Shown piece after piece: positions 8,314 to 42,081 of a stretch of DNA of 64,000 nt. Positions within the stretch are counted from its first letter, which is position 1. Each line of letters begins with the position of its first letter. The stretch comes from Streptomyces roseirectus (GTDB lineage: Bacteria > Actinomycetota > Actinomycetes > Streptomycetales > Streptomycetaceae), in contig NZ_CP060828.1 of assembly GCF_014489635.1 (NCBI RefSeq), positions 9,412,001 to 9,476,000 on the forward strand. Reading direction: 5' to 3'. The position numbers and the translations under genes were made by a program. A model generated the notes under the pieces. That model did not search any database and was not told where the DNA came from. It saw only the letters and a program-made list of their open reading frames with translations.

Positions 8314-8316
8314 TAG

Positions 8317-16096: not shown

Positions 16097-17032
16097 ATGA
16101 GTATTGGTGCAGTTCGACATCTCATCTCGACGTCCGACCTGACGGACACCGAACTGGCCGCCCTCGCCGAACGCGGCGCCGAGTTCTCGGCGGGATCGGT
16201 ACGCGGCGGCCGTCAACTCGACGGTCTGGTCGCGGGCATCTACTTCCTCAAGACCTCCACCCGCACCCGGACGTCGTTCTCGACGGCGGCCCTGCGGCTC
16301 GGCGCGCAGATCGTCACCTTCGGCCCGGGAGACCTGCAGACCAACACCGGCGAGACCCTGGCCGACACGGCCGACGTGCTCTCCCGCATGCTGGACCTCC
16401 TCGTCGCCCGCACCGCGGGCGACCCCGCCGACCTGCGCACGCTGGCCGGCCAGCGGAGGATGGCCGTCGTCAACGCCATGACGGCCGACGAGCACCCCAC
16501 CCAGGCGGTGGCCGACCTCGCCACGCTGCTCAGGCACTTCGGGCGGATCGAAGGACTGCGGATCTGCTACCTCGGCGAGGGCAACAACACCGCCGCCGCC
16601 CTGGCCCTCACCCTGACCAGGTTCAAGGGCGTCCACCTCGAACTGCGCACCCCGCCCGGCTACGGCCTCAGCCCCGCGACACTGCGCCGCGCGACGGAGA
16701 ACGCCGCGCGCAGCGGCGCGACCCTGGTGGAACGCCACTCCATGGACGAACGGCCGGCCGGCTTCGACGTCCTCTACACCACCCGGTGGCAGACCACGGG
16801 GACGAGCAAGGCGGACCCCGACTGGCGGCGCGCCTTCGCGCCCTTCCAGGTCACCTCCGCCCTGTGGGAGGACAGCCCGCAGGCCGTCTTCCTGCACGAC
16901 CTGCCGGCGCACCGCGGGGAGGACGTCACCGCCGAGGTGCTGGACGGCCCCCGCAGCCTCGCCTTCGACCAGGCGGAGAACAAGCTGTACGCGGCGATGG
17001 CCGTACTGGAATGGTGCGCCGGACGGCGCTGA
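16097..17032 (+). CDS. Ornithine/aspartate-carbamoyltransferase family enzyme, cluster carbamoyltransferase
   Basis: This 311-aa enzyme belongs to the ATCase/OTCase fold, transferring a carbamoyl group from carbamoyl phosphate to an amine. The carbamoyl-phosphate motif S-T-R-T-R is at residues 54-58 and HPTQ near 133-136, so that half-site is intact. The second-substrate loops differ: the OTCase HCLP motif is HDLP (about 267-270), and the SMG loop is replaced by a TTG-containing segment. A non-ornithine substrate is therefore likely. The cluster makes 2,3-diaminopropionate; carbamylation of its beta-amine would give 3-ureidoalanine, as VioL/CmnL-type enzymes are proposed to do in tuberactinomycin pathways. 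ATG 16097 has GGAGTG upstream. A housekeeping argF paralogue cannot be fully excluded, but the motif change and context argue against it. Confidence 0.75.
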   Translation: MSIGAVRHLISTSDLTDTELAALAERGAEFSAGSVRGGRQLDGLVAGIYFLKTSTRTRTSFSTAALRLGAQIVTFGPGDLQTNTGETLADTADVLSRMLDLLVARTAGDPADLRTLAGQRRMAVVNAMTADEHPTQAVADLATLLRHFGRIEGLRICYLGEGNNTAAALALTLTRFKGVHLELRTPPGYGLSPATLRRATENAARSGATLVERHSMDERPAGFDVLYTTRWQTTGTSKADPDWRRAFAPFQVTSALWEDSPQAVFLHDLPAHRGEDVTAEVLDGPRSLAFDQAENKLYAAMAVLEWCAGRR

Positions 17033-17094
17033 TCCGTAGCAGGTCCACAAGAAGGCAACCATTCACACGGCACGCAGAACAAGGTTGGTGGCCT

Positions 17095-18387
17095 GTGGCA
17101 CACTCCTGGTCAGAAATTCAGTGCACGCTCACCCGATGCGCACCCGGATCCTGTGATTCCGCCAGGTTCTTCGAGCAGGCGTACCGGCTCTGGTACGAAG
17201 GACAGATCAGCCTCAGCATGGAAGCCGTCGCCAAGGCCACGCACGTCGGCCGCGGCCGGTGCCCCGAGGACTGCCGTCAACTGGCCCATGTCTGGCTGGC
17301 CTCGCGCCTCGCGACACTCCAGATGCCCTGCTCCGGCCAGCGCGTCCTCGACGCCGCCGGGCCCCTCGACGCGGCCCCCGCCGCCCGGCTGCGCGCCCTG
17401 GCGTACGCGACCCAGGCACGTCTGGACCTCACACGTGGGCGGCTCGACGAAGCCGTGGCCGCCGCCACGGACTGCCTGCGCGCCAATCGGCCGAACGGCA
17501 GGGGATGCCTGCGCGCGACCGCGCACATCGTCCTTTCCACCTGCGCGCTGCGGAAAGGAGACACGAAGACCGCCTTCCGGATCGATAAAGACATGCGGGA
17601 CGACGCTCTCCTGGGCAACACGGGGGTCGCCCGGCTCTCGACCGCGTGCATGGTCGCCCAGATCACGGAGATCGCCATCGGTCCCACAGCGGCGGAATAC
17701 CTCCTTGAAGGGCTGGCCTCGGACACCGCGCAGCTCCACAGCCTGATCACGAGGCAGCCGGACGTCACGTCCTGGCTGGTGCGCACCGCGAACCGGCTGG
17801 GGAACGAGCAGATCTCCCGCAGGACGGTGTCGTCGGCCGGGGAACTCGCCGCCGGGCACCCCCAGTTCCGGGTCTTCCGCGCGTCGGCCCTGCACGCGGC
17901 GGGACTGACCGACAAGGACCCCGCCCAGCTGTGCGGCGCCGCGGAGCTGTACGCCGATCCGTGGCTGAAGGCGTCCGCCCTGGAGGACGTCGCCGTGCTC
18001 CTCTCGGCCCGGCGTTCGGACCACGCGTCGGCCGTCGGCTTCTTCAAGGAGGCGTCCCAGGGCTACGCCGCGACGGGAGCCGTGCGCGACGTCTCCCGGG
18101 TGGCGAACCGGCTGCGCGCCTTCGGTGTGCGCTGCCGGGCCGCCTGCGCGGAGTCCGGACCGGACACGGCGTTGCCGCTGACCAGCGCGGAGTCGGCGGT
18201 CGCCGACCTCACCAGCCAGGGGCTGACGAACACCGAGGTCGGCAAGCGGCTCTTCATCTCGCCGCACACCGTCGCGCATCACCTGCGGAGCATCTTCCGC
18301 AAGCTGAACATCTCCTCCCGTGTCCAACTGGCGCTCATCTGGAACAGCCACGCCCCGGTCCCGGAGGGCGTCAGGGCCCGGACCTGA
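17095..18387 (+). CDS. LuxR-family transcriptional regulator
   Basis: The chosen start is GTG 17095 with AAGG about 10 bp upstream; an upstream extension overlapping the carbamoyltransferase is in shadow sequence. The 430-aa protein has a long helical, TPR-like N-terminal region (repeated ARLRALAYATQARLDL-type helices) and a C-terminal LuxR HTH at about 365-420 (LTSAESAVADLTSQGLTNTEVG...SPHTVAHHLRSIFRKL). No Walker motif is visible, so it is shorter than LAL regulators. It lies between the carbamoyltransferase and the convergent sbnB-like gene (12 bp gap), so it probably controls the cluster. The inducing signal is unknown. Confidence 0.8.
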   Translation: MAHSWSEIQCTLTRCAPGSCDSARFFEQAYRLWYEGQISLSMEAVAKATHVGRGRCPEDCRQLAHVWLASRLATLQMPCSGQRVLDAAGPLDAAPAARLRALAYATQARLDLTRGRLDEAVAAATDCLRANRPNGRGCLRATAHIVLSTCALRKGDTKTAFRIDKDMRDDALLGNTGVARLSTACMVAQITEIAIGPTAAEYLLEGLASDTAQLHSLITRQPDVTSWLVRTANRLGNEQISRRTVSSAGELAAGHPQFRVFRASALHAAGLTDKDPAQLCGAAELYADPWLKASALEDVAVLLSARRSDHASAVGFFKEASQGYAATGAVRDVSRVANRLRAFGVRCRAACAESGPDTALPLTSAESAVADLTSQGLTNTEVGKRLFISPHTVAHHLRSIFRKLNISSRVQLALIWNSHAPVPEGVRART

Positions 18388-18399
18388 CACCCCGTCACA

Positions 18400-19422
18400 T
18401 CACCAGCGGGCCGTCTCCCCGAAGAACTCGGCGATCTCCACCGTGGCCCCTCGCCGGCGCGCCTCGCGCAGGACGTGATGGCCCACCGCCAGGTCCAGGA
18501 TGCCGAGCCCGAACGGGGAGAACACGGTCGGCCTCGCCGGATCCGGGACCACCTCGCCCGCCAGCACACCGCCCAGCGTCCCGGTGACGAACTCCCGCCC
18601 GCCGGTGAGCTGTTCGGCCAGATGGGGCGAGGTCTGGGCCTTCAGGCAGTGGTCGACGTCGTCGACGACGTTGTCGCAGCCCAGCAGGACCTCCGGAGCG
18701 AGGTCGCGCAGCGAGATGTTCAGCAGGAGCTGCCCAGGACGCAACAAGGTCCCGGCGGGCACGTAGGGCGTGGCCGCCGTGGTCGCGAACACCACCAGGT
18801 CCCGGGCGAGCGCCTGCTCCAGCGACCCCACCGCGCCGGGCACCCCGAGCCGCTGCCCGGCGTGCCGGACGAGATGCCCGGCGCTCGCCGCGTCCAGGTC
18901 GTGGACGAGGACGTCGGACAGGGCCACGCCATGGGCCGTGAGGTAGTCCAGTACGGTGCGGGCGATCACCCCGGCGCCGACGAAGGCCGCGCTCACCGGC
19001 CCGGCGCCGGGCGCCAGGGCGCGGGCCGCGATCGCCGCCGACGCCGCGGTGCGCGCGGCGCTGATCCCCGCCGCCTCCAGACAGGCCAGCGGATACCCCG
19101 TCGCGTAGTCGTTCAGCAGGAGGACGGCCGACGCACGCGGCAGCCCCCGCGCGATATTGCCGGGGAAGCTGGCGATCCACTTGATGCCGATCGCGTCCAC
19201 GTCACCGCCGAGATAGGAGGGCAGCGCGATGACACGGGCGTCGGGCTTGTCGGGGAAACGCAGGAAGTAACTGTCGGGATTGACCGACTGCCCCTGCTCG
19301 TGGGCCAGATAGGTACGGGCGACGATGTCCAGGATCGCGGCGTGGGAGGCGCCGAGGATGCCGGAGACGACCGGTCCGGGAACGACCGAGAAGGGGGCCA
19401 CGGGAATCTCTCCTGCTCTCAT
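18400..19422 (-). CDS. SbnB-like dehydrogenase for L-2,3-diaminopropionate synthesis
   Basis: A 340-aa member of the ornithine cyclodeaminase/mu-crystallin family. The ATG overlaps the preceding stop (ATGA at 19419-19422). The substrate-binding IKWIASFPGN block is near residue 90 and the NAD-binding FVGAGVIART motif near 145. Known SbnB enzymes oxidatively cleave N-(1-amino-1-carboxyl-2-ethyl)-glutamate to diaminopropionate and 2-oxoglutarate. It forms a translationally coupled pair with the SbnA-like gene, which is the strongest evidence for this role over cyclodeamination. It is the last gene of the core minus-strand operon. The product would be a direct NRPS building block or the substrate of the nearby carbamoyltransferase. 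Confidence 0.85.
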   Translation of the reverse strand: MRAGEIPVAPFSVVPGPVVSGILGASHAAILDIVARTYLAHEQGQSVNPDSYFLRFPDKPDARVIALPSYLGGDVDAIGIKWIASFPGNIARGLPRASAVLLLNDYATGYPLACLEAAGISAARTAASAAIAARALAPGAGPVSAAFVGAGVIARTVLDYLTAHGVALSDVLVHDLDAASAGHLVRHAGQRLGVPGAVGSLEQALARDLVVFATTAATPYVPAGTLLRPGQLLLNISLRDLAPEVLLGCDNVVDDVDHCLKAQTSPHLAEQLTGGREFVTGTLGGVLAGEVVPDPARPTVFSPFGLGILDLAVGHHVLREARRRGATVEIAEFFGETARW

Positions 19423-20399
19423 GGTGCGCTGACCGGCTGCGCGGCGGTCAGATCGGATGTCTCGGGGTAGTGGTCGCGCACCCAGGCGTCGCAGTACACG
19501 GTGTCCACGTACTTGTCGCCCAGGTCCGGGGAGACGGCGACGACCGTGCCGCCGGGCGCCAGCACCGGGGCGAGCCGGCGCACGGCGGACAGCACCGTCC
19601 CCGTGGAGCCGCCGACCAGCAGGCCGTACCGGGCGGCCACCATGCGGCACACGGCGATCGTGTCGGCTTCACTGACCTGCACCTTCTCCAGACCGTCCCG
19701 GTCGGCCCAGATCTCCGGCCGGCGGCTCGCGCCGATCCCCGGGATCCGGCGCGGCCCGGGAAGCCCGCCGAAGGTCACCGACCCCACCGCGTCCACCCCG
19801 ACGACCCGCGTGCGCGGGCTGTGCCGGGCGAAGTACTCCACGCAGCCCATCAGGGTGCCGGTGGTGCCCGCGCCGACGAACAGCGCGTCGACGTCCCCCA
19901 GTTCGTGGTGCACGGCACGGGCGGTCCGCTCGCGGTGCACACGGACGTTGGCCGGGCTGGCGTACTGGTTGAGCCACACCAGGCCCGCATCCTCGGCGAG
20001 CCTGCGCCGGATGTAGTCCAGCCGGGTGTGCAGATAACCGCCGTGCGGATCCCGGACGTTCACCTCGACGACCTCCGCGCCCAGACACTCCATCAACCGG
20101 ATGGCCTGCCGGGCCGCGTTGGGGTCGGTGACCACGGACAGCGGATAGCCGCGCGCCGCGCACACCGTGGCCAGGGCCACGCCGAGGTTCCCCGAGGACG
20201 ACTCGATCACCCGCCGGCCCGGCCGCAGCAGGCCCGTCGACTCCGCCGACTCGATCAGCGCGAGCGCCGTCTTGAGCTTGATCGACCCGGCAGGGTTCAG
20301 CCCCTCCAGCTTGAGGAGCACGTCCACCCGCGGGACGAAACCGGGAAGGCGCACGAAGACGTTGTCCAGGACGATGTCGGAAGCGCTGTCGTAGATCAT
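19419..20399 (-). CDS. SbnA-like PLP synthase of the diaminopropionate pathway
   Basis: A 326-aa cysteine-synthase-fold PLP enzyme. The PLP lysine is in PAGSIKLKTAL (about residue 36), the substrate loop is SSGNLGVALA (about 68-77), and the phosphate-binding loop is GAGTTGTLMG (about 170). SbnA homologues replace the phosphate of O-phosphoserine with glutamate to give N-(1-amino-1-carboxyl-2-ethyl)-glutamate. The start ATG 20399 overlaps the aminotransferase stop by 4 bp, and its own stop overlaps the SbnB start. This coupling supports diaminopropionate formation in the cluster. Plain cysteine synthase activity is the alternative, but unlikely with SbnB adjacent. Confidence 0.85.
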   Translation of the reverse strand: MIYDSASDIVLDNVFVRLPGFVPRVDVLLKLEGLNPAGSIKLKTALALIESAESTGLLRPGRRVIESSSGNLGVALATVCAARGYPLSVVTDPNAARQAIRLMECLGAEVVEVNVRDPHGGYLHTRLDYIRRRLAEDAGLVWLNQYASPANVRVHRERTARAVHHELGDVDALFVGAGTTGTLMGCVEYFARHSPRTRVVGVDAVGSVTFGGLPGPRRIPGIGASRRPEIWADRDGLEKVQVSEADTIAVCRMVAARYGLLVGGSTGTVLSAVRRLAPVLAPGGTVVAVSPDLGDKYVDTVYCDAWVRDHYPETSDLTAAQPVSAP

Positions 20400-21697
20400 G
20401 CGGTCCGCACTTCCCTCAGGAAACCAGCCAGCCTCCGCGCGCCCTCCTCGATCTCGGGCGGATCGAGGTAACTGCACGCGAGACGCAGCTCGTTGTCACC
20501 CGTGGCACCGAGGTAGAAGGGGGCCATGGGCGTCCACAGCACCCGGTGCTCCCGCGCACAGCGCTCCAGAAGCCCCATGTCCGCCCTGACGGGAATCCGC
20601 ATCCGCACGAAGAAGCCGCCCGTCGGCCGGTTCCACGACACCCCCGGCCCGGCGTCGTCCAGGTGACGGTCGAGGGCGCCGAGCAGCAGAGCGAGGTTGC
20701 GGCGGTACACCTCGGCCTTCAGCCTGCCGAGTTCGGCCAGCGAACCGCCGTGCTGGAGCAGCAGCCCCCCGATCACCGCCTGGGCGATCGCCGACGTGCT
20801 CACGGTCACCATCGTCTTGAGCGCCGCCATCGTCCCGGCCAGCGACGTCACACGCCCCGTCCGGGCGTCACGCACCCGCTGGTCGGCGACGACGAACCCG
20901 ACCCGCGCCCCGGGCAGACAGACCTTCGCGAAGGTACCGAGCACCACCACACGCCCGTCCCGGTCGAGGGCCTTCAGCGACGGCGGCGCCGCGCCGGGCA
21001 CCCCGGTGAACCCGTAGGCGATGTCCTCCAGCAGCACCAGATCCTCCCGCGCCGCCAGCTCCAGCAGCGCGAGCCGGGTCGCGTGGTCCAGGACGGTCCC
21101 GGAAGGGTTGGCGTGGTCCGGAGCGACATACAGCGCCCGCACACGCCGCCCGGCATCCCGCGCCGTCCGGCACAGCCGCCGCAGCTCGTCGAGGTCGAGC
21201 CCGCCCGCCGTCTCCGGCACCGGCACCACCGGCACGCCCAGCAGCCGGGCGGCACCCAGGATGCCCACGAACGACGGATCGACGACCGCCAGCAGATCCC
21301 CGGGCCCCGCGCACAGGGCGCGCACCGCGAGCAGCATGCCCTCCTGACAGCCCGCGGTGATCAGCACCGCCGACTCGTCCACCGGAAAACCGTGGTCACG
21401 GGTCAGCGCCTCGGCGACCAGATGGCCGATGATCCCCCGGCTCGGCCCGTACTCGCGCACCCGGCGCCGCGCCCGCACCGCGTCCAGCCCCCGGTCACGC
21501 TCCAGATGCGCGACGAAACGCCGGACGCACGCGTCCAGGTCGACCGCGTCGACGAAGGAGGCGTGCGGCGCGCCCGGGGCGAAGGAGATCGCGTCGGGAT
21601 AACGCGCCAGCGCCTCGTTGAGGAACCCGACGGACTCGACCGCCGGATCGGTGATCGCCGGGTGCAGCCCGCCGGCGTCGAGGACGAGGGGAGTCAT
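20396..21697 (-). CDS. hpgT: HpgT-like aminotransferase for dihydroxyphenylglycine
   Basis: A 433-aa fold-type I PLP aminotransferase. ATG 21697 overlaps the dpgC stop by 4 bp. The PLP lysine is in GTFAKVCLPGARVGF (about residue 257), with APDHANPSG near 205 and a C-terminal Arg in NELRLACSY for the carboxylate. In glycopeptide pathways HpgT converts 3,5-dihydroxyphenylglyoxylate, the DpgC product, to (S)-Dpg. The position directly after dpgABC gives the same assignment here. No hydroxymandelate synthase or oxidase genes are nearby, so 4-hydroxyphenylglycine is probably not made. A 2-aminoadipate-type aminotransferase is the other family reading. Confidence 0.85.
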   Translation of the reverse strand: MTPLVLDAGGLHPAITDPAVESVGFLNEALARYPDAISFAPGAPHASFVDAVDLDACVRRFVAHLERDRGLDAVRARRRVREYGPSRGIIGHLVAEALTRDHGFPVDESAVLITAGCQEGMLLAVRALCAGPGDLLAVVDPSFVGILGAARLLGVPVVPVPETAGGLDLDELRRLCRTARDAGRRVRALYVAPDHANPSGTVLDHATRLALLELAAREDLVLLEDIAYGFTGVPGAAPPSLKALDRDGRVVVLGTFAKVCLPGARVGFVVADQRVRDARTGRVTSLAGTMAALKTMVTVSTSAIAQAVIGGLLLQHGGSLAELGRLKAEVYRRNLALLLGALDRHLDDAGPGVSWNRPTGGFFVRMRIPVRADMGLLERCAREHRVLWTPMAPFYLGATGDNELRLACSYLDPPEIEEGARRLAGFLREVRTA

Positions 21698-22992
21698 CGG
21701 ACCTCCTGGCCGGGACGGGCGGCGCTGAACGCCGAGACCTTGTCCAGGACGTCCGGCGCGTACAGCCGCGCCCCCTGGTGCAGCGCGAACTCGGCCATGT
21801 ACGCGCGGAAGACGTCCGGCGGCTCCTCGGCGGCGGTCAGCATCGCCCGGTTCGCGGCCACGGCGGGCGCGGCCAGCTCCTCCACGGCCGTCTCCACGGC
21901 GGCGTCCACGGCGCCGGGCTCGACGACGTCGTCGCAGATCAGCCGCGCCGCCGGTTCGTCCGCCCGGATCGCGCGGCCGGTGAGGACGACCTGCCGCGCG
22001 ATCCGGTTGCCGACGAACCGCGGCAGCCGCAGATTCCCGGCGCCGGGCACGATGCCCTCGCGGGCGGCCGGGAGGGAGAAGGAGGCGTCGTGCGCGGCGA
22101 TCACCCGGTCCATGACGAACAGCAGTTGCATGCCGCCCCCGATGGCGAAGGTGTCCACCGCGCCGATCCACGGCTTCTGCGCCACGTCCCGCGCCGGACT
22201 CACGGCCCCGGGAACGTACAGGCCCCGCAACAGCTTGTTCACCAGGCCCAGTTCACGCCCGATCAGGAAGTCCAGGTACGAGATGCGGCCCTGGTGCAGA
22301 TGGACGAGGTTGATGCCCGAGCTGAAGACCCTGCGGCCCGCATACCGCCGGTGCGACACCGCGCCGCCCCGCAGCACGCCCACCCGGACCTCAGGGTCCA
22401 GGAGCGCCAGGTCGACGGCGGTCTCCATCGCGGCGACCAGCTCATTCGTCTCCGCGTTCAGGGTCGCCGGGTCCGTCATGGTCAGATGGCAGGCGGGCGG
22501 CCTGCGCTCCAGCACGACCGGCCCCAGGTCGGCCCGCCCCGTGCGCCGGAACTCCTCCAGCAGCGCGAGCGCGGCCGGCGTCGGCAGACGCATGGTGTCC
22601 AGGAGATGGCCGCCGCACCGGGGCGCGGCGAGCACGCCGTGGACGAAGATCGCCTGGTCGATCTCCAGCCCGTCCTTGTCGCGCTGCGCGCGCCGCTCCT
22701 CGGCGGCCATCCGGTCCCTGCCCGGCACGAGCCCGGGAAACCGCTCGGCCGCCCGGTGCACCAGGGGCGTCAGCCGGTGGCGGACCGTGCCTCCCTCGGT
22801 CAGCTCGTCGTAGACCTGCTCGGCGTGCCCGGCCATCAGGGCGGTGCGCAGCCGGCGTGCCTCGGCCGTGGCGTCGTCGAGGTCCCGCTGCTGGGCCGCG
22901 CCGCGATCGGGGCGGGGCGGAAGGGCGGCCAGCAGCGCTTCCTCGCGCCGGGCCGCGGTGGCCAGTGCGGTGAGCGTGTGGGTCGTGGTCAC
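21694..22992 (-). CDS. dpgC: DpgC, cofactor-free 3,5-dihydroxyphenylacetyl-CoA dioxygenase
   Basis: A 432-aa crotonase-fold protein with the long N-terminal helical extension seen in DpgC. GTG 22992 overlaps the dpgB stop (GTGA). The crotonase core carries RVFSSGINLVHLHQGRISY (first oxyanion-hole region) and KPWIGAVDTFAIGGGMQLL (second). DpgC oxidises 3,5-dihydroxyphenylacetyl-CoA with O2, without metal or flavin, to 3,5-dihydroxyphenylglyoxylate. The length and gene order dpgA-B-C-hpgT match Dpg cassettes of glycopeptide producers. Confidence is high because only the Dpg pathway uses this arrangement. Confidence 0.92.
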   Translation of the reverse strand: MTTTHTLTALATAARREEALLAALPPRPDRGAAQQRDLDDATAEARRLRTALMAGHAEQVYDELTEGGTVRHRLTPLVHRAAERFPGLVPGRDRMAAEERRAQRDKDGLEIDQAIFVHGVLAAPRCGGHLLDTMRLPTPAALALLEEFRRTGRADLGPVVLERRPPACHLTMTDPATLNAETNELVAAMETAVDLALLDPEVRVGVLRGGAVSHRRYAGRRVFSSGINLVHLHQGRISYLDFLIGRELGLVNKLLRGLYVPGAVSPARDVAQKPWIGAVDTFAIGGGMQLLFVMDRVIAAHDASFSLPAAREGIVPGAGNLRLPRFVGNRIARQVVLTGRAIRADEPAARLICDDVVEPGAVDAAVETAVEELAAPAVAANRAMLTAAEEPPDVFRAYMAEFALHQGARLYAPDVLDKVSAFSAARPGQEVR

Positions 22993-23654
22993 GGCCGTGC
23001 CCCTCCGTTCCTCAACAGGCGGTCGCACGCGGCCAGATGGACGCCGAGGGCTTCCTCGAACGAGGTGTGCGCGGCGTCGTCGACGAGCTGGCGCAGCAGA
23101 GCGGGTTCCAGCCCGGCGGGCAGGTCGCGGGCCAGCTCGTCGAGGCGGCGCTGGATCCCGCCGCTGTCCACCACCTCGTCCACGAGACCGAGCAGGCACG
23201 CCTCGCCGGCGTCGAGCGGGGTGCGCGGGTGGGCGAACAGGCACAGCCGGCGGGTCGCTGACGCGCCGATGCGCCGCGTCAGCCGGTGCAGGACCGTGCC
23301 GGGCCAGAACCCGGTGGCCGCCGTGCCGGGCAGCCCGAGCCGCAGGTTCCGCCCGGCCACCCGGAGGTCGGAGGCGCTGAGCACTTCCAGGGCCGGCCCG
23401 GAGCAGGCGCCGTCGGCCACCGTCACCGTGACGGCGGGCAGGCGCTCCCAGCGGCGCAACGCCCGCTCCCAGGTGTTCACCTCGTGCACCTCGGACGCGC
23501 CCGGCCAGTCGCGGCCGCCGCCGAGGGACAGCGCCGCGACGCGGGCGCCGGCGTCCTCCGCGCGCTCACAGGCGTCGACGACGGCCTTGGCCAGGTCGCT
23601 GTAGGGAAGATCGAGGGACAGGTCGGCTCGGAACAGGGCCGGGGAACGCTGCAT
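22989..23654 (-). CDS. dpgB: DpgB, enoyl-CoA hydratase-like helper of Dpg synthesis
   Basis: A 221-aa crotonase-family protein. ATG 23654 has GGAG 10 bp upstream; a much longer in-frame extension overlaps dpgA out of phase and is shadow. Residues 40-115 (LSLGGGRDWPG ... VADGACSGPALEVLSASDLRV) are the crotonase core. DpgB assists DpgA in forming 3,5-dihydroxyphenylacetyl-CoA by dehydration/aromatisation. The usual third helper, DpgD, is not found in this window, so DpgB may act alone or DpgD is elsewhere. Confidence 0.88.
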   Translation of the reverse strand: MQRSPALFRADLSLDLPYSDLAKAVVDACERAEDAGARVAALSLGGGRDWPGASEVHEVNTWERALRRWERLPAVTVTVADGACSGPALEVLSASDLRVAGRNLRLGLPGTAATGFWPGTVLHRLTRRIGASATRRLCLFAHPRTPLDAGEACLLGLVDEVVDSGGIQRRLDELARDLPAGLEPALLRQLVDDAAHTSFEEALGVHLAACDRLLRNGGARP

Positions 23655-24790: not shown

Positions 24791-24812
24791 CTGTCCTCCA
24801 AGGGGGGCGGCT

Positions 24813-33461: not shown

Positions 33462-33467
33462 GGCGCG

Positions 33468-34770: not shown

Positions 34771-35979
34771 GTGATGCGGCAGGTCAAGCGGGCTTTCAAG
34801 TACCGCTTCCATCCCACGGACGAGCAGGCAGCCGAGCTGTCGCGCACGTTCGGCTGCGTCCGTCTCGTCTACAACAAGGCGCTGGAGGAGCGGACGCGGG
34901 CCTGGTACGGCGAGCAGCGCCGTGTCTCCTATGTGCAGTCGTCGGCCGCGCTGACGGAGTGGAAGAAGACTGAGGAGCTGGCCTTCCTGACGAAGGTGTC
35001 CTCCGTCCCGCTCCAGCAGGCGCTGCGCCATCTTCAGACGGCGTTCGGGAACTTCTTCGCCAAGCGTGCGAAGTACCCGCGCCACAAGAGCCGGAAGAAG
35101 TCCCGGGCGTCGGCCGAGTACACCCGCAGCGCCTTCAAGTGGCGCGACGGGCAACTGACTCTGGCCAAAATGGCGGAGCCGCTGGACATCCGCTGGTCGC
35201 GTCCGCTGCCCGAGGGGGCGGAGCCGACGACGGTGACCGTGTCCCGTGACAGTGCCGGGCGCTGGTTCGTCTCGATGCTCGTCGAGGACACCGTCGCTCC
35301 GGGCCCCGCCACCGACGCAGCGGTCGGTCTGGACGCCGGGATCACCTCCCTGGTGACCCTGTCCACCGGGGAGAAGATCGCCAACCCGAAGCATGAGCGC
35401 CGGGACCGCACCCGTCTCGCCCGCGCTCAGCGGGAGCTGTCCCGCAAGGCCGAGGGCTCCGACAACCGGGCCAAGGCTCGTGTGAAGGTCGCCCGCGTCC
35501 ATGCCCGGATCGCCGACCGGCGCCGGGACTTCCTGCACAAGCTGTCGACTCGTCTCGTCCGCGAGAACCAAACGGTCGTGATCGAGGACCTCACCGTCCG
35601 CAACCTGCTGAAGAACAGCAAGCTCGCACGCGCCATCTCCGACGCGTCGTGGACGGAACTCCGCTCCATGCTGGAGTACAAGTGCACCTGGTACGGGCGC
35701 GAACTCGTCGTGATCGACCGCTGGTTCCCGTCCAGCAAGCTGTGCGGGGTCTGCGGCACGGTCGCGGCGAAAATGCCGCTGAACGTCCGCGAATGGACGT
35801 GCGACTGCGGCGCTGTGCATGACCGTGACGTGAACGCGGCACGCAACATTCTCGCCGCCGGGCTGGCGGTGTCTGCCTGTGGAGACGGTGTAAGACCTCA
35901 ACGGGAGTCCTCCCGGACGGGGCGGTCGTCGGTGAAGCAGGAACCCCAGCGGGCGACCGCTGGAATCCCTTGCCTTTAA
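34771..35979 (+). CDS. tnpB: IS605-type TnpB RNA-guided nuclease
   Basis: A 402-aa TnpB with an N-terminal OrfB_IS605 domain (FKYRFHPTDEQAAELSRTFG) and split RuvC: Asp in VGLDAGI near residue 191, Glu in VIEDLTV near 272, Asp in HDRDVNAARNI near 352. A zinc ribbon sits between (CGVCG ... CDCG). It looks intact. No tnpA transposase is adjacent, so the element depends on TnpA in trans or is immobile. TnpB proteins use an omega-RNA encoded at their own 3' end to cleave unoccupied target sites. The orientation is opposite to the cluster genes, and codon use resembles the host. Confidence 0.9.
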   Translation: MMRQVKRAFKYRFHPTDEQAAELSRTFGCVRLVYNKALEERTRAWYGEQRRVSYVQSSAALTEWKKTEELAFLTKVSSVPLQQALRHLQTAFGNFFAKRAKYPRHKSRKKSRASAEYTRSAFKWRDGQLTLAKMAEPLDIRWSRPLPEGAEPTTVTVSRDSAGRWFVSMLVEDTVAPGPATDAAVGLDAGITSLVTLSTGEKIANPKHERRDRTRLARAQRELSRKAEGSDNRAKARVKVARVHARIADRRRDFLHKLSTRLVRENQTVVIEDLTVRNLLKNSKLARAISDASWTELRSMLEYKCTWYGRELVVIDRWFPSSKLCGVCGTVAAKMPLNVREWTCDCGAVHDRDVNAARNILAAGLAVSACGDGVRPQRESSRTGRSSVKQEPQRATAGIPCL

Positions 35980-36000: not shown

Positions 36001-36038
36001 GTCCTTTGTCGCGGGAGGGGTGCGGCGTCCCGGCCGGC

Positions 36039-37100
36039 TCAAGCGGGCAGGGGTTCGGCGGGGAGTTCGAGGGTGCGGGTCTCGGCGCCGCGGTGGGTGC
36101 GCAGGACGACGCGCGGGGTGCCGTCCGCCGTGGTGACGATCTGGAGTGTGCGCTCCTGGACCCAGCCGGCGAAACGGAACTCGTGCTCGCCCATGTGGAC
36201 CAGGCCGAACGAGGGTTCGCCGTCCAGGAAGAGGGTCAGCCGGCCCTCGTGCCAGTCGACGGCCGCGTCCACCGAGGGCTGACGGTTGGTGAACTCGCCC
36301 TCGCGCTCCTGGAAGTCCGCGTACGAGCGCGGCATCGGGAACCGGCAGCGCAGCGCCTCGGCCTCGGTGTCCTTCAGGTCCTCGCCCGCCCGGTGGTAGG
36401 GCACGCTGCGCAGTACCTCGGGCGTGTGGAACTCCGGCGGGAACAGCGCCATCAGCTCACGCGTCACATGGGTGTCGACGACGAGGTGGACGCGCGTGCC
36501 GGTGCCCGTGTTCACCACCTGGTGGGGCCGGCTGAAGTCGGCGTACCACAGGCCGCCCACGGACCAGCAGTGCTCCCCGCCGTCGATGCGGAGCACGGCT
36601 TCGGGCAGCGTCACGATCGGGATGTGCAACCGCAGCCAGCCCCAGGGGAACGACGCCTTGGTGTCGTGGTGCTCCGGGCTGACGGCACCCGGCCCGAGCG
36701 CGAACAGGCGCGCGCTGCGGATGGGGGCGGGGATCGACTCCAGGACCTCGCGCAGGTAGGGGACCTCCGCGAGGCGCGGCGCGGGGGCGAAGTCGTCCAG
36801 CTGCGGGCCGCCCGCGTCGTGCCGGTCGTCGTGGCCGCCGATGCTGTGCAGCGGCAGGTTGCGCCAGTCGGTTCCGGTGATGTCGCCGGACGCGCCGGAG
36901 CCGTCGGTGTACTGGGGGCGGCCCCAGGCGCCGCCGCCCAGCCGTTCCAGGTCCGCCAGCAGGAGCTCGGGGGAGAAGTCGAGGGCGAGCCGGGCGGTGG
37001 CGGGCAGCCCCGCCAGGATCTCGGCGCGCGGCCAGGCGTCCTCGTCGACGTTGTCCTCGTCGCGGACGGGTATGTCGTAGGCGGTGGTGTGCGTGGTCAT
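36039..37100 (-). CDS. Aspartyl/asparaginyl beta-hydroxylase-like Fe(II)/2OG oxygenase
   Basis: A 353-aa protein with a jelly-roll core of the Asp/Asn beta-hydroxylase type. The iron site is suggested by HHD near residues 143-145 and a distal His in FSRPHQVVN near 192, followed by the 2-oxoglutarate-binding Arg (RVHLVVD). ATG 37100 is preceded by an ideal AGGAGG at 6-nt spacing and is preferred over an upstream GTG that overlaps the P450 stop. Relatives hydroxylate amino acids free or bound to carrier proteins (for example SyrP, proline cis-4-hydroxylases). A plausible substrate is the diaminopropionyl or module-2 residue. It is co-directional with and 29 bp after the P450. Confidence 0.75.
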   Translation of the reverse strand: MTTHTTAYDIPVRDEDNVDEDAWPRAEILAGLPATARLALDFSPELLLADLERLGGGAWGRPQYTDGSGASGDITGTDWRNLPLHSIGGHDDRHDAGGPQLDDFAPAPRLAEVPYLREVLESIPAPIRSARLFALGPGAVSPEHHDTKASFPWGWLRLHIPIVTLPEAVLRIDGGEHCWSVGGLWYADFSRPHQVVNTGTGTRVHLVVDTHVTRELMALFPPEFHTPEVLRSVPYHRAGEDLKDTEAEALRCRFPMPRSYADFQEREGEFTNRQPSVDAAVDWHEGRLTLFLDGEPSFGLVHMGEHEFRFAGWVQERTLQIVTTADGTPRVVLRTHRGAETRTLELPAEPLPA

Positions 37101-37129
37101 TCTTTCCTCCTGTGCGGTGGTCGGCCGGT

Positions 37130-38263
37130 TCACCGGCGCTGCGCCCTGACCATCAGTTCGTCGAAACCGCGCATCGTCGCGGTGGGGCGCTGGACGGGGG
37201 GCCGTACGGCGTGGACGCGGTACTGGCGGACGAAGTCGCCGACGACGTCGGTCGCGAGCCGCAGCGCCAGGTGGGTGCCCAGGCAGGAGTGCACGCCGCG
37301 GCCGAACCCGAGGTGGGGATTGGGGTCGCGGTCGAGCCGCAGCTCCTCGGGGGCGTCGAAGACGTCGGGGTCGCGGTTGGCGGCGGCGAGGAACACCACG
37401 ACCACCTCGCCCCGGCGCAGCCGCCGGTCACCGAGGACGGTGTCCTGGACGACGGCCCGGCTGGTGGCCTGCACGGCGCCGTTGAAGCGGACCAGCTCGT
37501 TGAAGGCCGTGCCGTCCAGGGCGGGCGGCGTGTCACCGGCCAGCAGCCCGTGCTCCAGCAGCGGCTGCAGGGCGTTGCCGAACATCGCGCTGCTGGACGA
37601 GTAGCCGGCCACGAAGATCGCCCGCAGCGAGTTGACGAGTTCGGCGCGGTGCTCGCCGACCGAGCCGGTGTCGATGCCGCTGAGCAGCCCGGCGTCCGGA
37701 TGGGTCGTGGTCCAGGGCTCGATCAGCGTGCTCAGGTACTCCCGCGCCCGGATCCCCGGTTCGACGCGGCTCGCGTCGAGGCCCGCGTCCATGCTGAGGA
37801 CGAGGTCCCGCTGGGCGTCGCGGAAACGCGGCACGTCGTCGATGAACGGCAGGCCGAACAGCTCGCACATGCTCTCCACCGCGAGGGGTTCGGCGAACTC
37901 GGTGACGAAGTCGAAGTCCCGCCCCTCCACCTCGGCCAGCAGCTTGGCCGCCGCCGACCGGGTGTCCGCCACCCAGCGCTTGAGGTCGAGGTCGCGCAGC
38001 GCGGGCAGGATCGCCCGGCGCAGCACGGTGTGCTCGGGAGCGTCGAGGGTCTGCACGCTGAGCAGTTCCGGGGTCACCGGGTCGCCGATCTTCCGGAAGT
38101 CCGACGCGTACGTCTCCGGTTCGCGCAGCACGCGCGCGCAGTCGGAGTGCCGGGTGACGATCCAGGCGTCCAGCTTCTCGTGGCGGCTGATGGGCTCCTC
38201 TTCGCGCAGCCGTCGGTAGGTCGGATAGGGATCCGCCAGCATCTCCGCGGACAGTGGATCCAT
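37130..38263 (-). CDS. Cytochrome P450 with atypical I-helix
   Basis: A 377-aa bacterial P450 from ATG 38263 (MDPLSAEMLADPYPTYRRLREE; AGGTGAG upstream); ATG 38287 would add eight residues. The K-helix ELVR and the heme loop FGRGVHSCLG (Cys near 326) are intact. The I-helix, however, reads AGYSSSS near 220, lacking the acid-Thr pair (AGxD/ET) used for proton delivery in most monooxygenases. Such changes occur in P450s acting on carrier-bound peptides or doing non-standard chemistry. Likely roles are hydroxylation or cross-linking of the Dpg-containing peptide. It is followed by the hydroxylase-like gene on the same strand. Confidence 0.88.
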   Translation of the reverse strand: MDPLSAEMLADPYPTYRRLREEEPISRHEKLDAWIVTRHSDCARVLREPETYASDFRKIGDPVTPELLSVQTLDAPEHTVLRRAILPALRDLDLKRWVADTRSAAAKLLAEVEGRDFDFVTEFAEPLAVESMCELFGLPFIDDVPRFRDAQRDLVLSMDAGLDASRVEPGIRAREYLSTLIEPWTTTHPDAGLLSGIDTGSVGEHRAELVNSLRAIFVAGYSSSSAMFGNALQPLLEHGLLAGDTPPALDGTAFNELVRFNGAVQATSRAVVQDTVLGDRRLRRGEVVVVFLAAANRDPDVFDAPEELRLDRDPNPHLGFGRGVHSCLGTHLALRLATDVVGDFVRQYRVHAVRPPVQRPTATMRGFDELMVRAQRR

Positions 38264-38329
38264 CACGTTCGTCTCACCTGTTCCCATGCACTCGCCCGGG
38301 GCCCGTTCGCACGAAGACCCGGGGCCCGT

Positions 38330-39712
38330 TCACACGAAGAAGAGCGGGCTGATCGTGGACTGCTTGATCTTTCTGGTCCTTCTGCCGATCGGCGCGCTCC
38401 GCCGGATCGCCGCCGCGGGCGCCGCCCCGGCCACCGCGTAGTAGCCGTACTCGACGAACGTCTCCTCGGTGAACAGGCCGCCCGCCCTGCTGACGGAGAC
38501 GTCGGTGGCCGCGCTGCGCGCCAGCGACTGGACCATCCACGCCTCGTCGGCGCCGAGGGCTTCCCCGATCAGGGCCTGCCACTGCTCGGGAGCGGTCTCG
38601 CAGCCGAGAGTGACGCCCCGGCCCTGGTAGCCCGCACCGGGTTTGAGGACGAGGTCCTGCTGGTGCGCGAGGGTCCAGGGCACCAGGTCGACGCGCTCGC
38701 CCCGGAAGGTGGCCGGCCCGTCCTCGAAGATCCGGGTCCAGGGGACGAAACCGTCCAGGACGGCGGCCTGTTCGGCGGCGACCCGGCCCGCGTCCAGCTC
38801 CTCGGACACCACCGCGAGGATCGTCTTGTGGCCGGCGATCTGGTCGTCCAGCGCGTCGACCACGGCGACCCGCCCGGCGCGCGCCGACGCGAACAGGGCC
38901 CGCAGGAACGGGAGATGGCCCACCGGGTCCGGTTCCTCGCCGCACAGCCGGTAGATCGCGCCGCACGGGACGCCGGCCAGCCGGACCCCGGCCGGACCGC
39001 ACTCCAGGTCCTCGACCGCGGCGACCTCGGCGCGCAGTCCGTGCCCGCGCAACTCGGCGGCAAGCGCCTCGTAGTGGGGGCCCGCGTCAGCCAGGTCCGC
39101 CGCGAACTCCGTGACCGCCACCAGCGCGTCCGGCGCCTGGCCGTGCTCCCGCAGCGCGGCGCCGACCGCTTCGGCGACCGCGCCCAGGACGTCACGCCGC
39201 CGCGCGCCCATGCCGCGCAGCAGGTCACCCACGAGCGGGGCGTCCTCGAACAGCCGGCCCAGGATGTCGGCGTCCGCCAGCGCGCCGCACGAGGTGCCGA
39301 CGTTCGGCTCGACCATGGTGACGTGGTCGCCGTGCACCACGATGTCGGGCCGGCCGAACCGGGCCCACAGCGGCGGACGGCGGACATCGACATAGCGCCG
39401 GGTGGTCTCGCCCAGGCGCAGATCCTCGGCCAGCTTCTGCCAGCTGCCGCCCATCCGGTGGGCGAAGATTTCCGCGAGCGCGGCACGGAACGCCGCGTGG
39501 GCGGCGCCGATCCGGTGGGCCAGCTCGACGGGGGCCACCGGCGGGGGAACGGGCAGCCGCTCCGGTTCCGCCGCGAACAGTCCACGCTGTCGCACGGTTT
39601 CCATGGCCTTGCCGTCCGGGTCGAAATAGGTGCCCAGCGCTGCCGCGTGCCGGCGCCCGAATTCCGCCACCACGGAATTAAGGTCGTGTATTTTTCCTTC
39701 GAGCGTACGCAT
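38330..39712 (-). CDS. Circularly permuted ATP-grasp-like ligase
   Basis: A 460-aa protein resembling the circularly permuted ATP-grasp group that includes glutathionylspermidine synthase. Indicators are MVEPNVGTSCG near residues 131-141 (Mg/acid strand) and LVLKPGAGYQGRGVTLG near 355-370 (ATP lysine and glycine loop). Such enzymes form amide bonds via acyl phosphates. ATG 39712 follows CAGGAA. In this cluster it could couple the NRPS product or a free amino acid to another amine, or release chemistry could depend on it. The exact family is not certain and no substrate is evident. Confidence 0.65.
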   Translation of the reverse strand: MRTLEGKIHDLNSVVAEFGRRHAAALGTYFDPDGKAMETVRQRGLFAAEPERLPVPPPVAPVELAHRIGAAHAAFRAALAEIFAHRMGGSWQKLAEDLRLGETTRRYVDVRRPPLWARFGRPDIVVHGDHVTMVEPNVGTSCGALADADILGRLFEDAPLVGDLLRGMGARRRDVLGAVAEAVGAALREHGQAPDALVAVTEFAADLADAGPHYEALAAELRGHGLRAEVAAVEDLECGPAGVRLAGVPCGAIYRLCGEEPDPVGHLPFLRALFASARAGRVAVVDALDDQIAGHKTILAVVSEELDAGRVAAEQAAVLDGFVPWTRIFEDGPATFRGERVDLVPWTLAHQQDLVLKPGAGYQGRGVTLGCETAPEQWQALIGEALGADEAWMVQSLARSAATDVSVSRAGGLFTEETFVEYGYYAVAGAAPAAAIRRSAPIGRRTRKIKQSTISPLFFV

Positions 39713-39922
39713 TTCCTGACCCCGGCCTCATTCCGTGCTGGCCGGGTTCGGGTTCAGCATGTGCGGAACCCGAACCCGCCTTGTGTTTCTCGCTCGCATC
39801 AGTGGAAGTAACGCATGAGAATCCCTCCTTCCGACTGTCCGGATTTCTTTTGGACAACTGAACCGTATCAGTCGCTCCGGCCGGAAAACTGGACTCGATC
39901 TGCAGTGGGAACCGGCAAATCC

Positions 39923-40927
39923 CTACAGGAATTCGTCTTCGCGCAGAACGGCCGACTGAGCCGCTTTCAGTTCGGCGCCCGGTTCCAGACCGAGGTCGTT
40001 GCGCAGCCGCTTTCTCATGTCCTGGAAAACATCCAGTGAGGCCGTTCGCTGGCCGGATGCCGCCAACGCCAGCATCAGCCGGGCGTGCAGCGCCTCGTGC
40101 CACGGTTCGTCCCGCGCCACTTTCCGCAGGGCCACGGCCGCACGCTGCTGTCCGCCCGAGGACATGGCCAGGTCGGCATAGGCGAGCGCGGCCTCGATCC
40201 GGCGGGCCGGCAGCTCCGTCCACTCCGTGAACACGGTCGGCCCGGCGTCGAGATCCGCGGCCACGGGGCCACGCCAGCAGCCCAGCGCAGCGGCCAGCGT
40301 GTCCGCCCGCAGCCCGGGGTCGTCGAGCGCGTCGGCCCGGTCGAGCAGCATGGTGAAGCGCAGCACGTCCAGCTCGTCCGCGTCGGCCCGGAGCGCGTAG
40401 CCGCCACCGCAGCGGTCGATCCAGTTCCGGGCGGCGCCCGCGCCCCGCTCGGACCGCAGGGCCCTGCGCAGCCGGGCCACATAGGTGTGGACGAGATTCA
40501 CACAGCTCGCGGGGGCCTCGTCCGGCCACAGGACGTCGACGATCTCGTCCCGGCCGACCGCCTCGTTGGGCCGCAGCGCCAGCAGCGCGAGCAGCAGCCG
40601 CTGCTTCATGGCGTCCAGCCGCACCGACTCCCCGCCCCGCCACACGACGAGCGGGCCCAGCACACCGATCAGCGGAGTACCGTCCTCGCACGGCGCCTCG
40701 ACGTCGCACACCGGGCCGCCGTCGCTGAGCGCCGAGTCGAGGCGGCGCCGTATCTCGGCGCTGGGCCGCAGCACCTGACTGCGTTCCAGGTAACGGATCT
40801 CCCGGACGCTGACCCCCGACTGCTCGGCGAGCCTCTGCTGGGTGAGGCCGGCCTCCAGCCGGTGTCTGCGCAACGTCGCGCCGAAGTACTCCTGCCGCGG
40901 GGCGTCCGCGGTCGTCGAAATGCTCAT
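39923..40927 (-). CDS. SARP-family pathway activator with N-terminal XRE domain
   Basis: A 334-aa regulator. Residues 15-65 form an XRE-type HTH (TLRRHRLEAGLTQQRLAEQSGVS). Residues ~80-170 form the OmpR-like winged helix of SARPs (GVLGPLVVWRGGESVRL ... LWPDEAPASCVNLVHTYVARLRRAL), and 175-325 the BTAD helical domain. The XRE-SARP fusion is less common than the plain SARP. ATG 40927 is used; a longer frame upstream overlaps the methyltransferase and is shadow. It lies among biosynthetic genes on the same strand and is the most likely direct activator of the cluster. Confidence 0.85.
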   Translation of the reverse strand: MSISTTADAPRQEYFGATLRRHRLEAGLTQQRLAEQSGVSVREIRYLERSQVLRPSAEIRRRLDSALSDGGPVCDVEAPCEDGTPLIGVLGPLVVWRGGESVRLDAMKQRLLLALLALRPNEAVGRDEIVDVLWPDEAPASCVNLVHTYVARLRRALRSERGAGAARNWIDRCGGGYALRADADELDVLRFTMLLDRADALDDPGLRADTLAAALGCWRGPVAADLDAGPTVFTEWTELPARRIEAALAYADLAMSSGGQQRAAVALRKVARDEPWHEALHARLMLALAASGQRTASLDVFQDMRKRLRNDLGLEPGAELKAAQSAVLREDEFL

Positions 40928-40983
40928 GCGTGATCCCGGGGGTGTCGTGCCGTACAGGGCGGGGCCGAGTGGGGGAAGACGGG

Positions 40984-42081
40984 TCAGCGGGCCGGAACGG
41001 CCTCGATGAGGCTGAGCGCGTACGGGAGGTCGACGACACGCTCGGCCACCAGCCCCGCCTCCCGCAGCAGGGCCAGGTACTCGGCGCGCCCGCGCTCCCG
41101 GCCACCGGGGTGCAGCGCGAGCATCCGCATGTCGAGGTCCTTGCCGAGGTGCGGCCGGTCGTCCTCCGGCAGTAGCATGTCGAGGAACAGGCACCGGCCG
41201 GCGCCGGACATGGCCGACACGACGGTCCGCCCGATGGCGATCGCGTCCGTGTCGGACCAGTTGTGCAGGACGTTGGAGAGCAGATACGCGTCCGCGCGGG
41301 GCACGGACCGGAAGAAGTCACCGGCCACCAGCTCGCACCGGTCCAGCACGCCCTCGGACGCCAGGAACTCCCGCGCGCCGGGCAGCACATGCTCCAGCTC
41401 GAACAGCACCCCGCGCACACGGGGGTTGGCCTTCAGCACGGCCGCGAGGATGGTCCCCACACCCCCGCCCACGTCGACGAGGCAGGAGACGCCGGAGAAG
41501 TCGTAGCGGGCCACCGCCGCGTCCGCGATCGTCCGCGAACGCGTCGCCATGTGGGCGTCGAAGTGCCCCCTGGCCTCGGGATCGCCTTCGAGATAGGCGT
41601 ACAGGGACCCGAACCGCGTGACGAACGGAGAACGCCCCGCCCGCACGGCCTCGGCCAGCGACCCCATCGCCTCCCTGAAGTCGGGCGCCCCCTGCGGAAT
41701 GACGACCGACCGCATCGAATGCTCCGCCCCACCGTGCAGGGTCAGCCCCGCCGGGGTCAGCGCATAACAGCGCCGGCCCTCCCGGACGGACACCGTGCGG
41801 ACGACGCCGAGCGCCGCGTTCGTGCGCAGCAGCCGCGCGAGCGCCCCGGCGTCCGCCCCGCAGCGCCGGGCGAGTTCGGCCACGTCGAGCGGGCCGTCGC
41901 GCAACCAGCGCGCCAGGTCCAGGGCGACGAAGGCGTACAGCGCGGAGAACCGCCACTCGCCCCGGATGATGTCCCACACGAGCGCCCGGGGGTCGTCGCC
42001 GTCGACGACGCTGTCCGGGGCCGGCGGATCAGACGCCGACGGATCCGACGCCGACGGCACGGAACCGGCAACAGGCTTCAT
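40984..42081 (-). CDS. Second SAM-dependent O-methyltransferase
   Basis: A 365-aa plant-type O-methyltransferase. ATG 42081 has GGAAGGG upstream and avoids a spurious long N-terminal extension. After a low-complexity Ser-Asp-Pro start (SVPSASDPSASDPPAPDS), the winged-helix domain precedes the SAM motif VDVGGGVGTILAAVL (about residue 205) and LLSNVLHNWSD (about 270). Together with the OMT at 33668-34672, the cluster can methylate two positions, for example both hydroxyls of Dpg or a newly hydroxylated site. It is the upstream-most gene of the minus-strand cluster block and marks its right edge. Confidence 0.85.
   Translation of the reverse strand: MKPVAGSVPSASDPSASDPPAPDSVVDGDDPRALVWDIIRGEWRFSALYAFVALDLARWLRDGPLDVAELARRCGADAGALARLLRTNAALGVVRTVSVREGRRCYALTPAGLTLHGGAEHSMRSVVIPQGAPDFREAMGSLAEAVRAGRSPFVTRFGSLYAYLEGDPEARGHFDAHMATRSRTIADAAVARYDFSGVSCLVDVGGGVGTILAAVLKANPRVRGVLFELEHVLPGAREFLASEGVLDRCELVAGDFFRSVPRADAYLLSNVLHNWSDTDAIAIGRTVVSAMSGAGRCLFLDMLLPEDDRPHLGKDLDMRMLALHPGGRERGRAEYLALLREAGLVAERVVDLPYALSLIEAVPAR

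What the first reader, a model, noticed from the sequence alone, without database searches (positions are those of the whole stretch)
16097..42081. Unassigned NRPS cluster combining Dpg and diaminopropionate supply
The cluster holds a full Dpg cassette (dpgA, dpgB, dpgC, hpgT-like) coupled by 4-bp overlaps to an sbnA/sbnB-like pair that makes 2,3-diaminopropionate, plus a carbamoyltransferase. Dpg is known mainly from glycopeptides and a few linear peptides, diaminopropionate/ureidoalanine from tuberactinomycins, zwittermicin and siderophores. I know of no product that combines them on a short (two A-domain) assembly line with two O-methyltransferases, a P450, an Asp-hydroxylase-like enzyme and an ATP-grasp ligase. 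The likely product is a small methylated Dpg-(ureido)Dap peptide.
Basis: partly seen in the sequence, partly recalled or inferred. Interest (0 to 1): 0.88.

Follow-up and report, generated by a model that had tools for sequence, protein, structure and literature searches.

The report
Mosaic Streptomyces dihydroxyphenylglycine–ureidoalanine peptide cluster
A Streptomyces-type soil bacterium carries a seemingly uncharacterised gene cluster that should build a small peptide from two rare amino acids, dihydroxyphenylglycine and (carbamoylated) diaminopropionate, next to a rare ATP-driven ligase module whose part in the pathway is still open.

Summary
DpgA, DpgB, DpgC, SbnA and SbnB pass NCBI's curated cut-offs, and dpgB-dpgC-hpgT-sbnA-sbnB are joined by four 4-bp overlaps. 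The NRPS reads (partial C)-A1-T1-C-A2-T2-E-C-T3, with MbtH and no thioesterase domain. Corrections: no dpgD was found; an intact TnpB gene splits the region; LuxR and SARP regulators are present; the carbamoyltransferase faces the operon.

Ureidoalanine supply is well supported. The carbamoyltransferase has the TRWQTTG and HDLP motifs given for diaminopropionate transcarbamylase, and in 17 of 19 genomes (own included) it lies within 25 kb of an SbnA-family/PALP gene, about 0.4 expected (9 of the 17 over the SbnA cut-off).

Dpg with SbnA over cut-off within 40 kb also occurs in 4 of 55 other dpgA-positive Streptomyces, so the pairing is uncommon, not unique.

The ATP-grasp/P450/hydroxylase trio recurs in 4 of 4 full-length relatives with no Dpg, Dap or NRPS gene found in their flanks (10 kb or less): it is an independent module, and its part in this pathway is unproven. 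MIBiG could not be searched. Verdict: a real mosaic cluster, new variant of a known kind.

The parts
16097..17032 (+). transcarbamylase, predicted L-2,3-diaminopropionate -> beta-ureidoalanine (DPTCase type)
   Evidence: OTCace domains; STRTR, HPTQ, TRWQTTG, HDLP, no SMG; only 34% to next best own-genome paralogue
17033..18387 (+). LuxR-type regulator, start not settled
   Evidence: GerE domain
18400..19422 (-). sbnB
   Evidence: TIGR03944 386 bits, cut-off 327; start by 4-bp overlap
19419..20399 (-). sbnA
   Evidence: TIGR03945 369 bits, cut-off 350
20396..21697 (-). hpgT-like aminotransferase
   Evidence: Aminotran_1_2; 55-62% to the aminotransferase of dpgA-B-C-AT loci L074, L075, L090, L091
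21694..22992 (-). dpgC
   Evidence: NF042432 549 bits, cut-off 530
22989..23654 (-). dpgB
   Evidence: NF042431 172 bits, cut-off 140
23702..24838 (-). dpgA, type III PKS, start not settled
   Evidence: NF042429 624 bits, cut-off 425
24813..33461 (-). NRPS: partial C-A1-T1-C-A2-T2-E-C-T3
   Evidence: Pfam, domain order
33468..33671 (-). MbtH-like protein
   Evidence: PF03621
33668..34672 (-). O-methyltransferase 1
   Evidence: PF00891; GTGA overlap with mbtH
34771..35979 (+). TnpB gene, intruder between the two halves
   Evidence: PF01385, PF07282; PDB TnpB
36039..37133 (-). Asp/Arg-hydroxylase-like Fe(II)/2OG oxygenase (module member uncertain)
   Evidence: PF05118; L-proline cis-4-hydroxylase E 4e-4
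37130..38287 (-). cytochrome P450 (module member uncertain)
   Evidence: PF00067; FGRGVHSCLG
38330..39712 (-). circularly permuted ATP-grasp ligase, rare family (module member uncertain)
39923..41194 (-). XRE-SARP regulator; true start probably below 40984
   Evidence: HTH_31, Trans_reg_C, BTAD
40984..42297 (-). O-methyltransferase 2
   Evidence: PF00891

Best explanation
A nonribosomal peptide cluster for a small peptide that contains Dpg and Dap or beta-ureidoalanine. Proposed steps: DpgA/DpgB make dihydroxyphenylacetyl-CoA from malonyl-CoA, DpgC oxygenates it to the keto acid, the aminotransferase gives L-Dpg; SbnA/SbnB make Dap from phosphoserine and glutamate; the transcarbamylase turns Dap into beta-ureidoalanine; A1 loads Dpg on T1, C joins it to the residue on T2 loaded by A2 (Dap or ureidoalanine), E inverts that residue, and the last C-T unit adds a third partner loaded in trans or releases the chain; the O-methyltransferases cap phenols. 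Shown here: gene identities, operon coupling, transcarbamylase-SbnA linkage. Inferred: A-domain substrates, order, methylation sites, release. The ATP-grasp/P450/hydroxylase trio is an acquired independent module that may supply or attach a further building block.
For: Curated cut-offs passed by DpgA/B/C and SbnA/B; four 4-bp overlaps; transcarbamylase motifs equal to those given for Dap transcarbamylase in PMC4581275 (passages); transcarbamylase within 25 kb of an SbnA-family/PALP match in 17 of 19 genomes (16 of 18 without own), expected about 0.4; closest transcarbamylase relatives (78-84%) have sbnA (69-76%) and/or sbnB (74-75%) in the flank in 5 of 5 loci looked at. A1 is most like the dpg-adjacent A domains of G212, G262, G274 (50-51%) and next to arylglycine and beta-hydroxytyrosine-type domains (46-48%); no Hpg genes were seen among the window ORFs scanned.
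Against: No A-domain code could be assigned with confidence; A2 has no informative match. No thioesterase, so release is unexplained. Transcarbamylase motif does not discriminate: every full-length transcarbamylase read has it, and in 6 of the 19 loci fetched no sbnA/sbnB was found in the stretch. Eight of the 17 linked matches are below the SbnA cut-off. PMC6022934 assigns the same motif to the diaminobutyrate enzyme. No transporter gene was seen among the ORFs scanned. The trio's link is not shown.
Confidence: 0.62

Rival explanations
1. Two neighbouring pathways: the Dpg-Dap NRPS cluster ends at O-methyltransferase 1 (about 16.1-34.7 kb), and the ATP-grasp/P450/hydroxylase set with SARP and O-methyltransferase 2 (36.0-42.3 kb) makes a separate product.
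For: Trio found together in 4 of 4 full-length relatives with no Dpg, Dap or NRPS gene in flanks of 10 kb or less, with radical SAM and MFS genes in some; TnpB sits at the joint.
Against: All genes of both halves except TnpB face the same way and nearly touch (98 and 59 bp either side of TnpB); only 10-kb flanks of the relatives were seen; the nearest relative (66%, P0002) has unknown context.
Confidence: 0.45
2. The transcarbamylase acts on diaminobutyrate (2-amino-4-ureidobutyrate, padanamide type), and Dap is used unmodified.
For: PMC6022934 section 4.1.3 (read) gives S/TRWQTTG to the diaminobutyrate enzyme; two Dab-transaminase family matches over cut-off exist elsewhere in the genome.
Against: PMC4581275, which it cites, says the reverse, with a residue table (diaminobutyrate enzyme S233, M234) that fits; linkage is to SbnA-family genes, and no class III transaminase was seen in the cluster.
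Confidence: 0.15
3. A decayed cluster: the partial C, A-less last unit and missing thioesterase mean the line no longer works.
For: C remnant and no TE; DNA repeats inside the NRPS (80% over 1094 nt, 84% over 817 nt); TnpB insertion.
Against: All ORFs intact; catalytic motifs present in C, E and three carrier sites; TnpB lies between genes.
Confidence: 0.12

Closest known systems
Pheganomycin-type Dpg loci (records L074 S. decoyicus plasmid, L075 S. globosus plasmid)
   Same: dpgA-dpgB-dpgC-aminotransferase order without annotated dpgD, aminotransferase 62% and 59% identical; P450 and methyltransferase in the cluster
   Different: their ligase (PGM1-related) shows no significant BLAST match to the ATP-grasp here; they have glycine amidinotransferase, not seen here; no SbnA/SbnB/transcarbamylase hit in them
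Glycopeptide antibiotic clusters (L076, Nonomuraea gerenzanensis)
   Same: DpgA 65%, DpgC 52%; arylglycine A domains 47-50% to A1
   Different: larger NRPS, DpgD-like second crotonase, separate aminotransferase; no Dap genes hit in the 50 kb seen
Tuberactinomycins (viomycin, capreomycin) and zwittermicin
   Same: Dap plus Dap transcarbamylase logic (PMC4581275 passages)
   Different: no Dpg there (recalled); no capreomycidine synthase in this window above cut-off
Unnamed Streptomyces loci L106, L108, L109
   Same: transcarbamylase 81-84%, sbnA 69-76%, two-A-domain NRPS
   Different: A-T-(E) plus C-A-T-TE line; no dpg gene hit in the stretch
E-64 ligase Cp1B (PDB 9cjn)
   Same: circularly permuted ATP-grasp fold, TM 0.60; partnered with an Fe(II)/2OG oxygenase in its cluster (PMC12568646 passages)
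   Different: 16% identity; fungal; no NRPS or Dpg

Membership tests
Dpg biosynthesis | DpgA, DpgB, DpgC over curated cut-offs | tested here: met
Dpg biosynthesis | DpgD present | tested here: not met
   NF042430 only hits dpgC and dpgB below its cut-off 400; only cluster ORFs scanned
SbnA/SbnB Dap pathway | both enzymes over curated cut-offs and adjacent | tested here: met
Dap transcarbamylase (DPTCase) | STRTR and HPxQ, (T/S)RWQTTG in place of DxxxSMG, HDLP in place of HCLP | tested here: met
   motifs as in PMC4581275, contradicted by PMC6022934
Dap transcarbamylase (DPTCase) | activity on Dap | not testable with these tools
   -
Glycopeptide antibiotic cluster | seven-module NRPS set with several cross-linking P450s (recalled) | tested here: not met
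   one NRPS with two A domains and one P450
Pheganomycin-type cluster | PGM1-like ligase and amidinotransferase | tested here: not met
   no significant BLAST match of PGM1; no amidinotransferase among ORFs scanned
Circularly permuted ATP-grasp ligase | glutathione-synthetase-like fold | tested here: met
Circularly permuted ATP-grasp ligase | Pfam CP_ATPgrasp cut-off | tested here: not met
   13.9 of 32 and 13.1 of 23.1 bits

The most novel reading that the evidence does not exclude
A hybrid pathway in which an NRPS makes a Dpg-ureidoalanine backbone and a new family of circularly permuted ATP-grasp ligase, working with a P450 and an amino-acid hydroxylase, makes or attaches a further, oxidised building block, perhaps taking the place of the missing thioesterase or third A domain.
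Probability: 0.28. Interest if true: 0.75.

Novelty: new variant of a known kind. Interest (0 to 1): 0.5.

Why it matters
If right, the cluster would give a peptide scaffold that joins arylglycine chemistry (from glycopeptides) to ureidoalanine chemistry (from tuberactinomycins), a pairing for which the searches of the paper library returned no characterised product. It also points to a rare ATP-grasp/P450/hydroxylase module in actinomycetes with no characterised member found here, and shows that the Dap transcarbamylase gene travels with SbnA genes in Streptomyces NRPS clusters, which helps predict ureido amino acids from genomes.

Tried and rejected
A-domain specificity: signature residues were read by hand from a recalled mapping to gramicidin synthetase (A1 about DAVVLGTVL-K, A2 about DVFYVTSVT-K); the script put residue 278 one column off and residue 299/301 of A2 one off, so its printed codes are not used. 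T at position 322 of A1 is shared with the Dpg-type domain of L076 and with G212/G262/G274, but also with three unrelated rows (G109_+18485, G070_-554, G333_-52926), so it is weak. PDB sequence search of both A domains gave only general NRPS hits. Whole-NRPS homologue search listed 120 of 2767 hits, ranked towards longer proteins; apart from the window's own, the best identity in the list is 52%; it could not show whether the strain with the 66% ATP-grasp relative has this NRPS. ATP-grasp in plasmids: 7 records, none covering 80% of it. Glycopeptide and pheganomycin membership rejected. A claimed coupling of carbamoyltransferase and LuxR by a 4-bp overlap was checked and dropped. No Rfam match at gathering cut-off in 13000-47000. 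Paper searches: one paper (PRISM, seen as listing), none, six (listing only). The library holds only openly licensed papers.
Full report
Setting. The window is 64 kb of a 9.95-Mb single-contig genome, positions 9,412,001-9,476,000, GC 0.60-0.74 by 4-kb step, no tRNA genes. Organism names are not given for the own genome; its relatives in the tools share its genus, which the hits name as Streptomyces.

Observation. DpgA, DpgB, DpgC, SbnA and SbnB each pass the curated NCBIfam cut-off. On the minus strand dpgB/dpgC, dpgC/hpgT, hpgT/sbnA and sbnA/sbnB overlap by 4 bp; dpgA and dpgB are 47 bp apart. The same strand carries the NRPS, mbtH and O-methyltransferase 1 upstream. DpgD was not found: its model hits only dpgC and dpgB, far below cut-off. 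The carbamoyltransferase lies on the plus strand, convergent with sbnB, followed by a LuxR-type gene.

NRPS. Pfam finds two A domains, three C-type domains and three carrier domains. Motifs give the order A1-T1-C-A2-T2-E-C-T3, preceded by the C-terminal part of a C domain (sequence). There is no thioesterase domain. The two full C domains are 80% identical over 1094 nt and the A1-T1 and A2-T2 ends 84% over 817 nt at DNA level, a sign of internal duplication. The third carrier has no A domain, so a third partner loaded in trans, or transfer to an acceptor, is expected.

A-domain preference. In an alignment of 49 A domains A1 is closest (50-51%) to the A domain next to the dpg genes in G212, G262 and G274; the next rows (46-48%) are mixed: Hpg-type and Dpg-type domains of L076, but also DASxVAAVC-type domains of G070/G109 and A2 itself. 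The first C domain is closest (45%, against 39% and 42%) to the L076 C domain that opens the minus-strand NRPS with an Hpg-type A domain, which in that pathway would receive Dpg (inference from recalled glycopeptide order). These fit Dpg on T1 but do not prove it. A2 remains unassigned.

Dpg lineage. In 29 of 30 dpgA loci (L006-L035) the aminotransferase lies upstream of dpgA and is 43-48% identical to the window's; one locus had none in the short flank. In L074, L075, L090 and L091 the order is dpgA-dpgB-dpgC-aminotransferase, as in the window, and identity is 62, 59, 57 and 55%. L074 and L075 carry PGM1-related ligases, and L075 an annotated pheganomycin family precursor. So the cassette belongs with the pheganomycin-like arrangement rather than the glycopeptide one. 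The ligase itself is unrelated by BLAST.

Ureidoalanine supply. The transcarbamylase keeps the carbamoyl-phosphate motifs STRTR and HPTQ and has TRWQTTG and HDLP, with no SMG. PMC4581275 (passages) gives (T/S)RWQTTG plus HDLP for the Dap enzyme and TRWQSMG for the Dab enzyme, while noting that the separation is unsure; PMC6022934 (section 4.1.3 read) states the reverse while citing it. Context helps: 74 of 392 Streptomyces genomes have a relative at E <= 1e-85. Of these, 19 were also among the 56 dpgA-positive genomes searched for SbnA. In 17 of the 19 (own included; 16 of 18 without it) the gene lies within 25 kb of a listed SbnA-family match; about 0.4 are expected for random placement in 9 Mb. 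Nine of the 17 nearest matches pass the SbnA cut-off, eight are weaker PALP matches (240-285 bits), although in one of those eight, G093, a second copy lies near an SbnA over cut-off. The two misses are on separate contigs of assemblies with 460 and 720 contigs. The five nearest relatives looked at (78-84% identical; G154 not fetched) have sbnA in L106, L108, L109 and sbnB in L106, L107, L110 within the stretch, and no dpg gene was hit there. Against this: of 19 transcarbamylase loci fetched, some chosen for known linkage, 12 show sbnA or sbnB in the same stretch, one has sbnA about 20 kb away, and six show none. All full-length transcarbamylases read there share the motif, so it does not discriminate. 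The nearest paralogue in the own genome is only 34% identical, so the gene is not the housekeeping copy.

Is Dpg plus Dap unique? dpgA over cut-off occurs in 56 of 392 Streptomyces genomes. SbnA over cut-off lies within 40 kb in the own genome (4.2 kb) and in 4 of the other 55: G333 (10.7 kb), G274 (19.5), G212 (26.6), G262 (36.5). In G333 a rhamnogalacturonan lyase gene lies between, so it may be two clusters. SbnB was hit in G333 and G262 but not in the fetched stretches of G274 and G212. In five others (G070, G084, G098, G109, G140) a PALP below the SbnA cut-off is followed by a transcarbamylase (51-53%) within about 10 kb of dpgA, with no sbnB hit in the 40-100 kb fetched. The tight co-transcription in the window was not seen in these nine.

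ATP-grasp trio. The ligase family is rare: 25 proteins including the window's own among 7993 candidates scored, a capped search. In the genus sample 38 of 392 genomes have some match at E <= 1e-30, but after the own 695 bits the next is 189 bits and partial; among 376 relatives (overlapping that sample) only the own genome passes 1e-80. The genome-contig scan gave four full-length loci (48-51%) in Nonomuraea, Actinomadura, Nocardiopsis and Kitasatospora, and one partial hit in an Acidobacteria MAG. All four carry the P450 (43-48%) and hydroxylase (47-51%) beside the ligase, in the window's order in three and rearranged in Kitasatospora. No Dpg, Dap, transcarbamylase or NRPS match was found in their flanks of up to 10 kb (4.4 kb on one side of the Nocardiopsis locus). 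Radical SAM genes stand nearby in the Actinomadura and Nocardiopsis loci, MFS genes in three, and DUF5937 regulators in the Actinomadura and Kitasatospora loci; the window has a DUF5937 regulator at 45425-46477, but such regulators also occur elsewhere (G333). The model matches human glutathione synthetase (TM 0.68), and among others the E-64 ligase Cp1B (0.60). Cp1B, which joins epoxysuccinate to an amino acid, is partnered with an Fe(II)/2OG oxygenase (PMC12568646, passages). The hydroxylase here is distantly like L-proline cis-4-hydroxylase (E 4e-4). The trio thus looks like a portable module that oxidises and ligates a small acid or amino acid (inference).

Conclusion. The region is a mosaic: a ureido-Dap supply set, a pheganomycin-type Dpg cassette, a short duplicated NRPS, and an ATP-grasp module, with TnpB at the joint. 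The most likely product holds Dpg and Dap or ureidoalanine; odds 0.62. Whether the trio belongs is close to even.

Noticed in passing
34771-35979: Intact TnpB gene with RuvC D/E/D motifs and a CxxC finger (motif reading recalled) between hydroxylase and O-methyltransferase 1.
   Followed up: partly
177-1355 and 7146-8324: Two 1179-nt arms, 99% complementary, each with a split DDE_3/HTH_33-type transposase; between them a lower-GC stretch with two ORFs (2420-4240, 5087-6328) without Pfam hits.
   Followed up: partly
39923-41194: SARP regulator with an extra N-terminal XRE-type HTH domain.
   Followed up: no
38185-38287 of the P450 region, I-helix of 37130-38287: P450 I-helix reads AGYSS instead of the usual acid-alcohol pair, which may mean unusual chemistry (recalled rule). 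The first coordinates given here mark only the gene's 5' end.
   Followed up: no
49819-50898: Terpene synthase gene close to the cluster.
   Followed up: no
55561-59298: One protein with alginate lyase, F5/8 type C and chondroitinase B domains.
   Followed up: no
PMC4581275 and PMC6022934: Two reviews assign the TRWQTTG and TRWQSMG motifs to opposite transcarbamylases.
   Followed up: partly
L088, L089, G098, G140, G070: Large NRPS loci with Dpg genes, a PALP and a transcarbamylase side by side but no SbnB hit: a further Dpg/ureido combination.
   Followed up: partly
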